A stretch of DNA of 64,000 bases from Pseudocercospora fijiensis CIRAD86. Taxonomy: Eukaryota; Ascomycota; Dothideomycetes; Mycosphaerellales; Mycosphaerellaceae. The notes under the pieces were generated by a model. It did no database searches. It was not told where the DNA came from and saw only the letters and a list, made by a program, of their open reading frames with translations. This document shows positions 17,862 to 27,740 of the stretch, piece after piece; within the stretch, counting starts at the first letter, position 1, and each line of letters starts with the position of its first letter. A program made the translations under genes and the position numbers. The DNA lies in assembly GCF_000340215.1 (NCBI RefSeq), contig NW_006921535.1, positions 6,175,414 through 6,239,413 of the forward strand, written 5' to 3'.

Positions 17862-17864
17862 GTA

Positions 17865-17884
17865 TAGACCCCGCAGTAGTTCGG
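17865..17884 (+). repeat. Left terminal inverted repeat of the hAT element
   Basis: TAGACCCCGCAGTAGTTCGG, identical over 20 bases to the reverse complement of 27721-27740. It contains a CpA that is unmutated in both copies. Confidence 0.95.
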
Positions 17885-17989
17885 TTTCCGAACTACTAAA
17901 CGTATATAGTTTGGTTTCTTAGCGGCGAACTAGCTCCCTAGTTCCGGTTTGGTTTTTTCGAACTATATAGATTCCTAGTTTGAACTAGA

Positions 17990-18310
17990 GACTGTATTAG
18001 TTTTACTATAAGGACACTCTTATTCGACTGCCGGCTACGATTGCCGGCCATAATAGTAACTCTGTTATATTTACTAGGCGTAGTTGCCGTTGCTAGGGCG
18101 TAGTTGCCGTTGCTAGGGCGTAGTTTTGCTATAAGGATACTCTTATTCGACTGCCGGCTACGATTGCCGGCTATAATAGTTACTAGGTTGTATTTACTAC
18201 GCTTTATTACCGTTGCTAGGGCGTGGTTGCCGTTGCTAGGGCGTAGTTGCCGTTGCTAGGGCGTAGTTGCTGTTGCTAGGGCGTAGTTGCCGTAGTTGCG
18301 AAAGCTTACC
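17990..18310. repeat. Subterminal repeats: 20-bp minisatellite and ~125-bp duplication
   Basis: Tandem units GGGCGTAGTTGCCGTTGCTA (about eight copies in two groups). A segment starting ATAAGGACACTCTTATTCGA and containing two GCCGGC sites is also duplicated (about 18005 and 18130). The position just inside the terminal repeat suggests transposase-binding subterminal repeats, as in other hAT elements. That role is inference. Confidence 0.75.
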
Positions 18311-18760
18311 TATATAACGTTACGTAGGCGGCAACAATTAGGGCTTCGCGATATTCTTATACTTTCAACTTCTTCCTCTATACCTATACCGATAATAACT
18401 ACTATACGCTACGCCCCTACCCCTTTCCCTTACAATAGCAAGAGAGAAGCGCGCCGCGCGCTAAATAGAAGATAGAACTAAAGACCGCGAGTTTGTTTTG
18501 CCTAAGCGTCTAACTAAAAAGCGCAAGACTAAAGAGGAGTACTCTACGAAGAAGAATTCCGTACGAGACCGCGAGAGAAAGGACAAGATAGATAAGGATA
18601 AAAGAGCTAAGGATAAGAGAAGAAAGGCGCGGAATAAGGCATTCTATCGATAGCTAGCGCCTATAGAAAAAAGTAAAGGTTGGAATAAGAAGACAACCTA
18701 AGAGAAGGCTAAGAGGAGGAAAGAATTACGGCCAGTTTTCGAGCGTAAAGTTCTAGTAGC

Positions 18761-18860
18761 GTAAGTCAATCTAGCTAGCGGCCGTAGCTAGTAGCTGTAG
18801 CCGGCAGCCGTAGCCGGTAGCTATAGCCGGCATATTTTTCTTTAACACGTTAACTAATAG
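18761..18860 (+). other. Transposase intron with GCCGGC repeats
   Basis: GTAAGT donor, GTTAACTAATAG at the 3' end, 100 nt. It holds four GTAGCC-type units, including two exact GCCGGC. Confidence 0.7.
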
Positions 18861-19348
18861 TATTTAGACCTATAGTCGCTACCTCTATCGATACGACCGA
18901 TAGTAACGGAGATATTTAGATAGCCGAGAACAACAATGCTAGAGTTTAGGATACCGCGATAGAGCTTAATGCTACGAATAAAGGAACTGAAAAAAGCGAG
19001 GAGATACTATACGTCGATCTAGTAACAGGTATAGTCTTAGGGCCTAACGCTATAGACGATAAGCGCTAGGAGTAGATCGAGCATAGTTAAAGAGACGAGA
19101 TACTAGTAAAGGGCTAAGGTATAAGTCCTATTAATCTAGAAAATTATAGTTAAAGCTACTACGAAAAGCTAGCAAGGATTGGAATCGAGACTAGTCGTCT
19201 TTATATCCTCGATATAGAGTAGAAGTTTCTTTATTAGTATTAGAGCGAAGCCTTTGCGTCTATAAAGGCAAAGTAGCTTACGATTAATGCGATCGGGGCT
19301 AGGTATCTAGGGACGGCAGAAGTGTTACTATAGGAGGAAGGGGTACAG

Positions 19349-19414
19349 GTAATTATTCTATACTCGGTATATGTAGCCGGCGTTCGTAGCCGGCAGATAC
19401 TAACAGTTAAACAG
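19349..19414 (+). other. Transposase intron with GCCGGC repeats
   Basis: GTAATT donor, ATACTAACAG branch region, ACAG acceptor, 66 nt. It holds two GTAGCCGGC units 14 bp apart. These ends keep the reading frame; the nearer AG at 19406 would not. Confidence 0.65.
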
Positions 19415-20744
19415 AAAGCGTTTCTCGAAGGCAGAGTACCACTACTATATAAAATCTTTACTAAGGCAGAGAGGGCTTATATCCGGAATCTAAGCTGCTA
19501 GTAGGATAGGTTAGCGTTGGAATTCTCTAAATCTCTATATAAGCCTCCGAAGGATTACCTATTTTAGCGATACGGCTTTATCTCGACTACTCCGTAGGTA
19601 CCCGAAGAAGCTCGAGTGCTCTTTAAGGTCTTTACTAAGAAGCGGAAGGAGTTCGAGGATTAGGATTAGTTAATAGAGCTGTTAGTTAGTCTTAGGTTTC
19701 GTAGTTAGACTCGGCCTAAGCATTTGCTTATCGAGTGTCTTATACCGAAAGAGGATAGATTGAGACTAAAAACGAGCTTAGATTCGTTAGGTATAGTAGC
19801 TCGGTTCCGTTAGTAGGAGAGAGCCGCCGTATAGAAGGTAAAATTCAGGTAGTTAGGGTAGCTAGGAAAGAAATTCTAGTAGTTAGGCTAGCTAGGGTAG
19901 CTAGGAAAAAAAATCTAGTAGTTAGGTAGCTAGGAAACAAAAAAAAAAGGTAGCTAGCTATTTACTGCCTAGCTGTTCCTAACGATACGATGCTATAAAA
20001 GAAAGGGTGTTTCTCTATAGCTACTAGTATACATCTACTACTCCTAAGTCCTTACCTTACCGTACGAAACCTTAAAACATACCGACCGACATTGTATATA
20101 CACTAGGCGCTATACTAGGAAGGGTAACAACGAGACGACAGTCGAAATAGTCTAGTATACGAGCGAGATTGCGACAACGTCGAGAGGAGGTCGTATACTT
20201 ACCTTCGAGCCTATCGAGTCCTAGACTACGATTAGGGCTAGATTTATCCTCTCCGAATCCTAGTAGTAGGAATTCATTATAGGGTACTACTACCTAGTCC
20301 TTACCTTTACGGAGTCTAAGTAGAAGGTTGTTCGGAGATATAAGAACATCGAGTATTAACCCGGAAATCTTCGAAAAGGCTAGCTAGGCGTATCTTTAGA
20401 AACCCGAGTATATAGAGCAGTTTAATTAATAGGTCTATAAGATATAGTTCCCTTTATACTTACGTTCGAAGGAGTGTAAACTCCGGAAGTACTCGATACG
20501 ATAGGGGAGTAAGGAGCGAACGGATACATTCTAGAAGTTCTTTATAGAGGGGGCATTATACCGTTATACGACTTCTCGACTTAAAGGTTAACTAGTAATT
20601 GTCTATAACTTCTACGGTTCAATCTTAAAATACCCGAAACTAGGGGATAGGAACTTATCGCCTACGAACTATCTCTATTCTAAACGGTGTCGGGAATCTT
20701 AAGGAGAGAGGAGAGTTGATATAGATATAGCGTTCTAGAAAGAG

Positions 20745-20844
20745 GTATGTCTTCTAAAATGCCGGCTATAGCTGCCGGCTACAGCTGCCGGCTACAGATT
20801 CCGGCTACCTAAATCAACCGTAGAGATCTAGCTAATTATTATAG
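20745..20844 (+). other. Transposase intron with GCCGGC repeats
   Basis: GTATGT donor, GCTAATTATTATAG 3' end, 100 nt. It holds three GCCGGC units in tandem (period ~13 bp, GCCGGCTACAGCT) and a diverged fourth. Confidence 0.75.
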
Positions 20845-26131: not shown

Positions 26132-26314
26132 CCGTAGCCCTCCGTAAGATTCGGCAGTATTAGAAGAGTTCTAAGCTCCTAATCCGCAAAACTCCTTTCT
26201 AACGACTTGTTCGCGAAATTGCCTAGGATTATAGAATAGACCTTCGCTTCTAAGCCTCCGCGATAGGCGCCCTTTAAGAGGCTATAGAAGCCTACCTAGT
26301 TCGTATCTTCGAAT

Positions 26315-26362
26315 GTATGTTTCTCTTCTACCTCTTTTCGGACTATACTAATACTATTTTAG
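26315..26362 (+). other. H3 gene 2 intron 2, without GCCGGC repeats
   Basis: GTATGT donor, ATACTAATAC branch point, TTTTAG acceptor, 48 nt. It splices FE to NLIAIYAKR, as in histone H3. Confidence 0.85.
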
Positions 26363-26669
26363 CGGTTAACCTTATAGCTATCTACGCGAAGCGTATAACG
26401 ATTATAGACAAGGATTTCAAAGCACTCGATCAGATTCTAAAAGGCTAGAATGTCTACATTCGAGATAGTGCTAGATAGGATAGATGTACTAGTAGGAAGG
26501 ATGTTCGTAGTGTCGTCTATAAGCTTTTCTATATACGAAATAAGCCGCTGTTATACGGCGCTGCATACCGCGCTCTAAATACTCTCTAAGCATATATATA
26601 TAGTATAGTATGCTTTATTAGCCGTACGGAATAGAAGTCTCCCAAAATCCCGTTAGTACTAAGGAGTAA

Positions 26670-26712
26670 AAAGGCCGGCCACGCTGCCGGCTACGCTGCC
26701 GGCTACGCTGCT
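26670..26712. repeat. GCCGGC array 3' of H3 gene 2
   Basis: GCCGGCCACGCT, then GCCGGCTACGCT twice, then GCTAGCTACGCT: a 12-bp tandem near the right end of the element. Confidence 0.85.
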
Positions 26713-26862
26713 AGCTACGCTGCTAGGTTTTTTAAAGAACTAAAAGAAGATAGACATTCCGGTTGATTTGTATTAGTTTAGATTTTTATAAAAAGAAAAC
26801 AGGGAAAAATAAGGAAGGTTGAAGAGCCTAATAGTTATAGTTATAGGCACTATCCCTGTTTT

Positions 26863-27312
26863 CTAGAGCATATTATATACCTGCCTTCGCAACTCTACCT
26901 AATACTCCCTCTAAATATCCTTATACTCTACCTACTAGAAATTCAACTAGGTACCTAGACCTGTAGCTGCCTCTATATCTTTCACTATCTTCTATAGGTT
27001 GAAGGCCTCTTCTATAGTAGCCTCTACCTCCTTATACAACACGAAGTTACTACCTGCCCTACCCTTTATATCTCCTAAATGACTAAGAGTTCTAAGGAAC
27101 GAACTAGCATTCGGCCTTAGTATAGCGAGTAACTGGTAGAACGTTCTGCAGAGCTGCCTTATAGCTCTTTTATATACTGTGCCGATACCGAGGGAGGAGC
27201 TATCCTAGTACTTAATATTATCGAATAGTTCGGTAGGAAAGTATATAAACTTCTTAAGGAGGAGGACTTCTAGGGAAATCGATAAGTTCTGCCTAGATCT
27301 AGATAAAGACAT
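26863..27312 (-). pseudogene. Small helical protein gene of the hAT element, lightly RIPped
   Basis: Minus-strand ATG at 27312-27310 (MSLSRSRQNLSISLEVLLLK), 150 codons to TAG at 26863-26865 without indels and only about seven RIP-type stops inside. The product is all helix-like: GIGTVYKRAIRQLCRTFYQL, NASSFLRTLSHLGDIK, VEATIEEAFNL, KIVKDIEAATGLGT. No signal peptide and no domain recognised. It is convergent with H3 gene 2 and runs inward from the right end. It keeps more CpA/TpG than its neighbours. Confidence 0.6.
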
Positions 27313-27536
27313 TCTGCTAAGCAGTTAGGGAATTGAACCGTAAACGAAAGGATGAAATTTATACCTAAGGAGTGCAGTTTCCGAACTGAACTATAATGCC
27401 TTATATGTATGTATGCTTTTGATTGGTTAGTGCCCTTAGCTAATTGTCTATAGATTTGAGGTTATATAAGTACCTTCATACAACTACGTAGCCTAAGTAG
27501 GATTCGAAAATTCTATAAGTACTAAGGACTAAAAAT

Positions 27537-27562
27537 GCCGGCTACGCTACCGGCTACACTGC
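27537..27562. repeat. GCCGGC-type array near the right end
   Basis: TGCCGGCTACGC followed by TACCGGCTACAC, about 170 bp inside the right terminal repeat. It is the same unit as in the introns. Confidence 0.75.
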
Positions 27563-27720
27563 TAAGTCTTACAAAGGGCTTGCTTGAAGCTACGTATACA
27601 TTCGTACACTTCTTAAAAACCGATAAATTATATAGTTCGAACCAGCTACTTATATAGTTGCTTAGCAAACCAACCTAAACCAAACTAGAGTTTCGGCTTA
27701 GCAAACCAAACCAAACCAAC

Positions 27721-27740
27721 CCGAACTACTGCGGGGTCTA
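27721..27740 (-). repeat. Right terminal inverted repeat of the hAT element
   Basis: Reverse complement is identical over 20 bases to 17865-17884. Inside it, CCAAACCAAACC-type repeats and TATATAGTTCGAACC mirror the left subterminal GGTTTGG and GAACTATATAG sequences. Confidence 0.95.

What the first reader, a model, noticed from the sequence alone, without database searches (positions are those of the whole stretch)
17862..27740. A hAT DNA transposon that carries two divergent histone H3 genes
Seen: perfect 20-bp terminal inverted repeats and a near-perfect 8-bp target duplication enclose a transposase with the hAT DSW and TDNASNN motifs and two H3-fold genes. Gene 1 shows FKLGTITLR, RLVREITLDF and NLLAIYTKRVTL. 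Gene 2 shows KAPRKTTAGK, GTVALRKIR, RLVREIA and NLIAIYAKRITI. Both have tails of ~100 residues ahead of the GT that begins the fold (canonical H3 has ~43). Known: hAT elements capture host genes, but I know of no hAT carrying histone genes. Inference: cargo histones might mark or load chromatin at the element, influence target choice, or blunt silencing.
Basis: partly seen in the sequence, partly recalled or inferred. Interest (0 to 1): 0.93.

Follow-up and report, generated by a model that had tools for sequence, protein, structure and literature searches.

The report
Dead hAT transposon carrying histone H3s
This is a mutated, repeated jumping gene in a plant-infecting fungus that carries two histone H3-like genes; the element is already published, but the sequence suggests that the histones are old working parts of it and not a recent accidental pick-up.

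Summary
In detail: window 17865-27740 is one RIP-mutated copy of a ~9.9-kb hAT element (20-bp TIRs; perfect 8-bp TSDs in sister copies) with a transposase, an unknown gene and two divergent H3-fold genes. It is not new: Dhillon et al. 2019 (PMC6710886) described this family in Pseudocercospora fijiensis, Manning et al. 2013 (PMC3538342) an H3-carrying hAT in Pyrenophora. What I add bears on the published reading (captured transcript of host H3). (1) The reported 16-residue insertion of the second H3 matches a predicted 48-bp GT-AG intron; another intron lies at the start of the fold. (2) Two further subfamilies in this genome carry both H3 genes in the same places. (3) RIP alone explains 6 of 40 and 7 of 31 residue differences from host H3. 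(4) Across subfamilies 7 of 7 H3 coding indels keep frame (21 of 66 noncoding) and fold transversions favour third positions (p=0.013; H3-1 alone p=0.18). Against: 8 of 29 copies share a 1-bp deletion near H3-1's first ATG. The H3s were probably functional element genes until RIP; their role in chromatin is inferred.

The parts
17865..17884 (+). left terminal inverted repeat
   Evidence: start confirmed by other copies
27721..27740 (-). right terminal inverted repeat
17998..18310 (.). subterminal tandem repeats (20-bp and 123-bp units)
18441..19840 (+). gene A, unknown function, basic N-terminus, RIP-broken; predicted introns 18761-18867 and about 19349-19414; ends approximate
   Evidence: no Pfam family at E<=1 on two exon pieces or E<=10 spliced; 1-bp indel between subfamilies leaves the model unsure
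20370..23186 (+). hAT transposase, RIP-broken (44 in-frame stops); predicted introns 20745-20844, 21357-21408, 21779-21847, 22674-22719; start uncertain
   Evidence: one frame of 850 codons after splicing, the donor of the second intron chosen for frame; weak Dimer_Tnp_hAT match; third-position transversion excess p=1.2e-6 across subfamilies
23507..24240 (+). H3-1: divergent H3-like gene; start 23507 or, in frame, 23555; GT of the fold at 23858; two-residue insertion before LLIPK; 13 in-frame stops from 23507; no intron seen
24562..24760 (.). assembly gap (N); the four other full copies fetched have no N
25752..26448 (+). H3-2: divergent H3-like gene, exons about 25752-26040, 26132-26314, 26363-26448; tail with three 9-residue KAPRKTTAG-like units
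26041..26131 (+). predicted H3-2 intron 1, GTAAGT..ACTAAT..TTTAG; splicing gives GTVALR
   Evidence: two of four other full copies differ here by a 12-bp gap
26315..26362 (+). predicted H3-2 intron 2, 48 bp, GTATGT..ACTAAT..TTTAG; same size as the published 16-residue insertion
18029..27544 (.). 22 copies of TGCCGGCTA inside the element (23 in the whole window, 0.45 expected): by my gene models 9 in predicted introns, 12 in spacers, 1 in the 3' extension of H3-1

Best explanation
The window holds one copy of the RIP-killed hAT family already described in Pseudocercospora fijiensis. Shown: TIRs, TSDs in sister copies, high copy number, RIP, and two H3-fold genes present in three subfamilies of one genome. 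Predicted from sequence: introns in the transposase, gene A and H3-2. Inferred from substitutions and indels: both H3 genes were old resident genes of this hAT lineage, kept as proteins by selection until RIP destroyed them, and not a recent retrocopy of the host H3. Inferred mechanism: the products pair with host H4, enter nucleosomes on element or host DNA, and their altered long basic tails make chromatin that favours transposition or resists silencing. If needed at all they act in trans, since end-only derivatives lacking H3 also moved.
For: Same family as published: against 5, 23, 31. Old and not RIP-made: H3-1 differs from host H3 at 40 of 85 fold codons, 6 explicable by C>T/G>A alone; H3-2 at 31 of 85, 7 explicable (stops counted as differences, the two-codon insertion of H3-1 left out). 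Five copies of the window subfamily differ pairwise by 262-324 transitions but 2-17 transversions in 9.7-9.9 kb (a few flank bases included); 21 gapless H3-1 copies show 431 transitions and 0 transversions against the window copy (of 30 hits, one below 95% of the length and 8 with a 1-bp gap left out). So the burst is recent, while H3-1 and host H3 differ by transversions at 21 of 85 third positions. Subfamilies B (L043, perfect TSD GAAGTAAA) and C (L054) carry both H3s with introns at the same places; H3-1 of A/B/C form one clade (99/99), H3-2 another (100/100). Selection: distinct H3 coding indels 7 of 7 multiples of three against 21 of 66 noncoding, Fisher p=7e-4; no indel in either fold across A, B, C; transversion-variable sites of both folds 16, 11, 26 by codon position, p=0.013. 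Trans action: a 372-bp end-only derivative with perfect TSD GTGCTACC; 40 near-full-length among 42 rows, 40 of 848 candidates scored.
Against: 8 of 29 window-subfamily copies share a 1-bp deletion at 23536-23539, within H3-1 if it starts at 23507: either the true start is the ATG at 23555, or a frame-shifted H3-1 was multiplied. H3-1 fold alone has no significant third-position excess (p=0.18) and the tails have none. For H3-2 the third-position transversion distance between A and B (corrected 0.24) is not far below that to host H3 (0.32), so its age rests less firmly than that of H3-1 (0.066 against 0.34). One RIP-damaged copy per subfamily was used, and indel counts depend on one alignment. 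The intron rate (0.065) is below the intergenic rate (0.185), so the neutral yardstick is uncertain. AU tests do not exclude H3-1 or H3-2 from the canonical ascomycete H3s (p 0.0505 and 0.075; 0.22 and 0.51), nor the two H3s from being sisters (0.14; 0.38). No expression, protein or chromatin data. Introns are predictions. The transposase search found no relative.
Confidence: 0.64

Rival explanations
1. Published view: a transcript or retrocopy of the host H3 was captured by the hAT once, about 100 Mya, amplified, and inactivated by RIP; the copies are passengers and the second carries a 16-residue insertion.
For: Dhillon et al. 2019; the H3-1 frame runs without a gap over the place of the host's second intron (the tail is too diverged to judge the first); the shared 1-bp deletion near the start of H3-1 in 8 of 29 copies.
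Against: H3-2 has two predicted introns, one exactly 48 bp, matching the reported 16 residues; coding indels keep frame and fold transversions favour third positions.
Confidence: 0.17
2. Two already diverged H3-variant genes, evolved in some host under host selection, were captured together or one after the other by the ancestor of the three subfamilies, and later drifted as cargo.
For: Diverged long-tailed H3-like proteins are known elsewhere: Drepanopeziza brunnea, 372 and 383 aa, and an environmental protein P0001 that shares a two-residue insertion with H3-1.
Against: Selection signal after the A/B/C split. Whether the Drepanopeziza genes themselves lie in transposons was not testable here.
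Confidence: 0.15
3. Structural role: the H3-like proteins are part of the transposition machinery (folding the ~10-kb element DNA for synapsis) and not chromatin variants.
For: Fold kept while the tails diverge; element-wide TGCCGGCTA arrays could organise DNA.
Against: Nothing shows such a complex; 372-bp derivatives moved without the length.
Confidence: 0.08

Closest known systems
Histone-H3-carrying hAT of Pseudocercospora fijiensis and relatives (Dhillon et al. 2019, PMC6710886)
   Same: Same family: ~9.5-9.9 kb, 20-bp TIR, 8-bp TSD, two H3-like copies, RIP CA>TA, hundreds of copies, host H3 on scaffold 6 (C6 here)
   Different: They infer transcript capture, a 16-residue insertion and no dimerisation domain; here the insertion matches a predicted 48-bp intron, a sub-cut-off dimerisation match is found, and three subfamilies with frame-keeping H3 genes are described
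hAT with H3L in Pyrenophora tritici-repentis (Manning et al. 2013, PMC3538342)
   Same: hAT transposase, an unknown ORF and an H3-like gene between TIRs
Long-tailed histone H3 proteins of Drepanopeziza brunnea (P0003, P0006)
   Same: Long tail; share TPFQRLVREIT with H3-1, P0003 also AFLV and QNKDM; group with H3-1 and P0001 at 98/84 in one tree
   Different: Lack the two-residue insertion; genomic context unknown; grouping only 83/66, open, in the second tree
CenH3 (CENP-A)
   Same: Divergent H3 with a long tail
   Different: Loop 1 has the canonical length (by eye) and neither gene groups with host CenH3

Membership tests
hAT superfamily | short terminal inverted repeats | tested here: met
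   perfect over 20 bp in the window copy; left/right mismatches to it 0/3, 2/0, 1/1, 0/1 in L039-L042, 3/2 in L043, 1 left in L054, whose right TIR was not found
hAT superfamily | 8-bp target site duplication | tested here: met
   perfect in L040, L041, L042, L043 and the 372-bp derivative; not clean in the window copy or L039; not tested in L044 and L054
hAT superfamily | transposase with C-terminal dimerisation region | tested here: inconclusive
   PF05699 17.5 bits under the 21.4 cut-off, 14.5 bits in the spliced protein; no relative in the protein search; Dhillon et al. report DUF659 but no dimerisation domain
P. fijiensis H3-hAT family (PMC6710886) | ~9.5-9.9 kb element with two H3-like copies, the second with 16 extra codons, RIP bias | tested here: met
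   9,876 bp with a gap of 199 N; 9,922-9,938 bp in L039-L042; 48-bp segment; CpA/TpG bias
P. fijiensis H3-hAT family (PMC6710886) | species identity | tested here: inconclusive
histone H3 | H3 histone fold | tested here: met
   Pfam Histone 85.7 and 97 bits; AlphaFold model of H3-1 with helices 119-131, 140-154, 162-191, 197-223 (mean pLDDT 65, pTM 0.37); listed Foldseek matches are nucleosome entries, E from 3.3e-6, target TM 0.44-0.67, rmsd 7-17 A
CenH3 | longer loop 1 and grouping with host CenH3 | tested here: not met
   alignment by eye and trees; the two AU tests for this did not finish
retrocopy of host H3 | absence of introns | tested here: not met
   for H3-2: predicted introns at the same places in three subfamilies; H3-1 shows none, so for H3-1 a retrocopy origin stays open

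The most novel reading that the evidence does not exclude
A lineage of hAT transposons encodes its own pair of histone H3 variants as standing, selected genes, one (H3-2) keeping a repeated H3 tail module, with which it remodels chromatin to move or to escape silencing: transposon-encoded histones as a functional part of a mobile element.
Probability: 0.38. Interest if true: 0.85.

Novelty: already known. Interest (0 to 1): 0.5.

Why it matters
If transposons carry histone variants under selection, chromatin becomes a battlefield in which the parasite supplies its own nucleosome parts. The published account treats the H3 copies as captured, inactivated cargo; the intron, subfamily and frame evidence here makes the functional alternative testable with existing genomes of the Cercospora/Pseudocercospora/Sphaerulina group and with the intact Pyrenophora element.

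Tried and rejected
Transposase homology: Pfam on exon pieces in partly wrong frames, in right frames and spliced gave only a sub-cut-off dimerisation match; the protein search scored 7,997 candidates, none at E<=0.001. Gene A: no Pfam match. K79R as a shared feature of both H3s was dropped: B and C keep K in H3-1. CenH3 identity was set aside. The first three-subfamily tree had H3-1 of B in a wrong frame through my cut and was replaced. A close tie of H3-1 to Drepanopeziza is suggestive only (98/84, 83/66). Gene A showed one 1-bp indel in the three-way alignment and two in the two-way. The gapless-copy count used loci taken as the best-scoring histone places plus L039-L042, so it leans to less damaged copies. 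Genomic context of the Drepanopeziza and environmental relatives, and the Pyrenophora element, could not be fetched. Paper searches for other transposon-borne histones or a later revision; among the listings only PMC6710886 and PMC3538342 looked to the point; the others were seen as listings only. PMC6710886: outline and parts 1-5 of 7 read. PMC3538342: passages only, 12 of 13 places.
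Full report
What is there. The window lies at C4:6175414-6239413 of a 73.94-Mb genome of 30 contigs. From about 3 kb on it is RIP-mutated (CA and TG odds 0.31-0.41, TA 1.59-1.67). Positions 17865-27740 are bounded by 20-bp perfect TIRs. The left 501 bases match 39 other scored places at 95-97% identity, of 492 candidates; 30 of the 39 start at base 4 of the query, which fixes the end at 17865. Of four other full-length copies fetched, three have perfect 8-bp TSDs next to the TIRs (L040, L041, L042); one has a damaged right end (L039). 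The window copy itself has only a near-match displaced by 3 bp on the left.

Already in print. Dhillon et al. 2019 (PMC6710886; outline and parts 1-5 of 7 read) describe this family in Pseudocercospora fijiensis: 9.5-9.9 kb, 20-bp TIRs, 8-bp TSDs, one or two H3-like copies per element, 784 H3-like copies in 471 elements, RIPped, the host H3 intact on scaffold 6. Here the host H3 is on C6 and what I read as host CenH3 on C5, both without stops, while the other 148 of 150 scored histone places have in-frame stops (772 candidates). For the H3-2 fold, 149 of 150 scored places have stops, the exception being the host H3 (778 candidates). The species name is an inference from this fit; the genome handle carries none. 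Manning et al. 2013 (PMC3538342; passages only) describe a 5.6-kb hAT with an H3-like gene and ESTs in Pyrenophora tritici-repentis.

Gene models (predictions). With four introns the transposase reads in one frame over 850 codons with 44 in-frame stops; the donor of the second intron was chosen for frame. H3-1 (23507-24240) has no intron in its fold and, from 23507, 13 in-frame stops, 4 of which are sense in at least one of 21 gapless copies. H3-2 has introns at 26041-26131 and 26315-26362; splicing restores the H3 register (...RLGTVALRKIR......RIFESVNLIAIY...). The second intron is 48 bp, 16 codons, so I take it to be the '16 AA insertion' that the paper ascribes to a mutation. In B and C both introns lie at the same places; intron 1 is 91, 103 and 69 bp in A, B and C with like signals, intron 2 is 48 bp in all three, with ATATAT in place of the GTATGT donor in B and C, a change of the RIP type. 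Two transposase introns also lack the GT donor in B or in both B and C, and one gene A intron lacks the branch-like motif in C. Two of four other full copies differ from the window by a 12-bp gap inside H3-2 intron 1. The host's second intron is also phase 1 and 3 nt upstream of H3-2 intron 1 (by eye), which fits capture from genomic DNA but does not prove it.

Age. Against the host H3, H3-1 differs at 40 of 85 fold codons and H3-2 at 31 of 85 (stops counted, the two-codon insertion of H3-1 left out), of which 6 and 7 fit C>T/G>A alone. Five full copies of the window subfamily differ pairwise by 262-324 transitions but 2-17 transversions in 9.7-9.9 kb, and 21 gapless copies of H3-1 show 431 transitions and no transversion against the window copy: the burst is recent. 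Third-position transversions are 0.247 between H3-1 and host H3 and 0.062 between A and B (corrected 0.34 and 0.066); for H3-2 the contrast is weaker, 0.235 and 0.189 (corrected 0.32 and 0.24). The likely order is: divergence from host H3, subfamily split, burst, RIP. In the A/B/C tree H3-1 forms one clade (99/99) and H3-2 another (100/100). Their deeper place is open: H3-1 grouped with an environmental protein P0001 and two Drepanopeziza proteins at 98/84 in one tree, in an open 83/66 group in the next, and AU tests do not exclude the canonical set. P0001 and H3-1 both have two residues more than canonical H3 before LLIPK (by eye) and are 59 of 94 identical, against 50 of 94 for host H3.

Selection, counted on transversions because RIP makes none. 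Across A (window), B (L043) and C (L054), one copy each: the transposase has 130 variable sites with 54% at third positions (p=1.2e-6), a positive control; both H3 folds together 16, 11 and 26 by position (p=0.013); H3-2 fold alone p=0.03; H3-1 fold alone 5, 1, 6, p=0.18; tails no excess. Variable-site rates: H3-1 fold 0.041, transposase 0.051, introns 0.065, H3-1 tail 0.086, leader 0.088, H3-2 tail 0.144, H3-2 fold 0.152, intergenic 0.185. Noncoding stretches cut into mock codons show no common third-position excess. Distinct indels: H3 coding 7 of 7 multiples of three, transposase 5 of 5, noncoding 21 of 66 (Fisher p=7e-4 for H3 alone). This is what genes kept as proteins look like. The sample is small and rests on one alignment.

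A result against this. Of 30 H3-1 hits among the loci held, 29 reach 95% of the length (the 30th is a subfamily B copy); 8 of these 29 share a 1-bp deletion at 23536-23539. If H3-1 starts at 23507 this is a frameshift that multiplied; if it starts at the in-frame ATG at 23555, with a tail of 101 codons, the deletion lies outside the gene. I cannot decide between the two. The three-way indel test is not changed by it, as the A, B and C translations keep register there.

Protein features. The fold of H3-1 is recognised at 4.1e-27 against solved H3. An AlphaFold model (mean pLDDT 65, pTM 0.37, fold blocks up to 95) has the four H3 helices, and the listed PDB matches are nucleosome entries at E from 3.3e-6, with target TM 0.44-0.67 and rmsd 7-17 A, so the fold is recognised but the overall model is poor. 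H3-2's tail carries a 9-residue KAPRKTTAG-like unit three times in A, two in B and one in C; it resembles the K9-K27 part of canonical H3 (by eye). Loop 1 has the canonical length, unlike host CenH3 (by eye).

Mechanism. Shown: the element moved (TSDs) and multiplied; end-only derivatives of about 372 bp, with a perfect TSD in the one examined, also multiplied, 40 near-full-length among 42 rows, so H3 genes are not needed in cis. Inferred: H3-1 and H3-2 were made as proteins, pair with host H4, and alter chromatin to favour transposition or resist silencing. No data here speak to the last step.

Verdict. It is already known, so novelty is low; the finding that the H3 genes, H3-2 above all, look like old, frame-keeping, intron-bearing parts of the element disagrees with the published capture-of-a-transcript account and is worth a specialist's check.

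Noticed in passing
window 18029-27544: TGCCGGCTA arrays (22 of the 23 in the window, 0.45 expected) in predicted introns and spacers, spaced 12-13 bp where tandem; 11 and 10 copies in B and C. Possible transposase or element-protein binding sites.
   Followed up: partly
L048, 3211-3582 (C11:953894-954265): A 372-bp non-autonomous derivative made of the two element ends, inserted in the H3-1 region of a B copy with perfect TSD GTGCTACC; 39 more near-full-length rows at 81-97% identity.
   Followed up: yes
L043, L044, L054, L045-L046: Two further subfamilies: B about 83% identical to the window element in its 5' part and 75-79% further on; C about 89% and 83-84%.
   Followed up: yes
window 18441-19840: Gene A, a basic gene with predicted introns and no Pfam match, possibly the counterpart of the unknown central ORF of the Pyrenophora element (not compared).
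   Followed up: partly
window 23536-23539: Shared 1-bp deletion in 8 of 29 copies close to the first ATG of H3-1: start codon or amplified frameshift unresolved.
   Followed up: partly
window 24761-25193: An 80-bp direct repeat (24761-24840 / 25114-25193) beside the assembly gap; the gap may be a repeat that was hard to assemble.
   Followed up: no
window 1-3000: GC 54-59% without RIP signature, against mostly 35-45% in the rest: a gene-rich edge next to a RIP-mutated block; the window's other end lies about 25 kb from the contig end.
   Followed up: no
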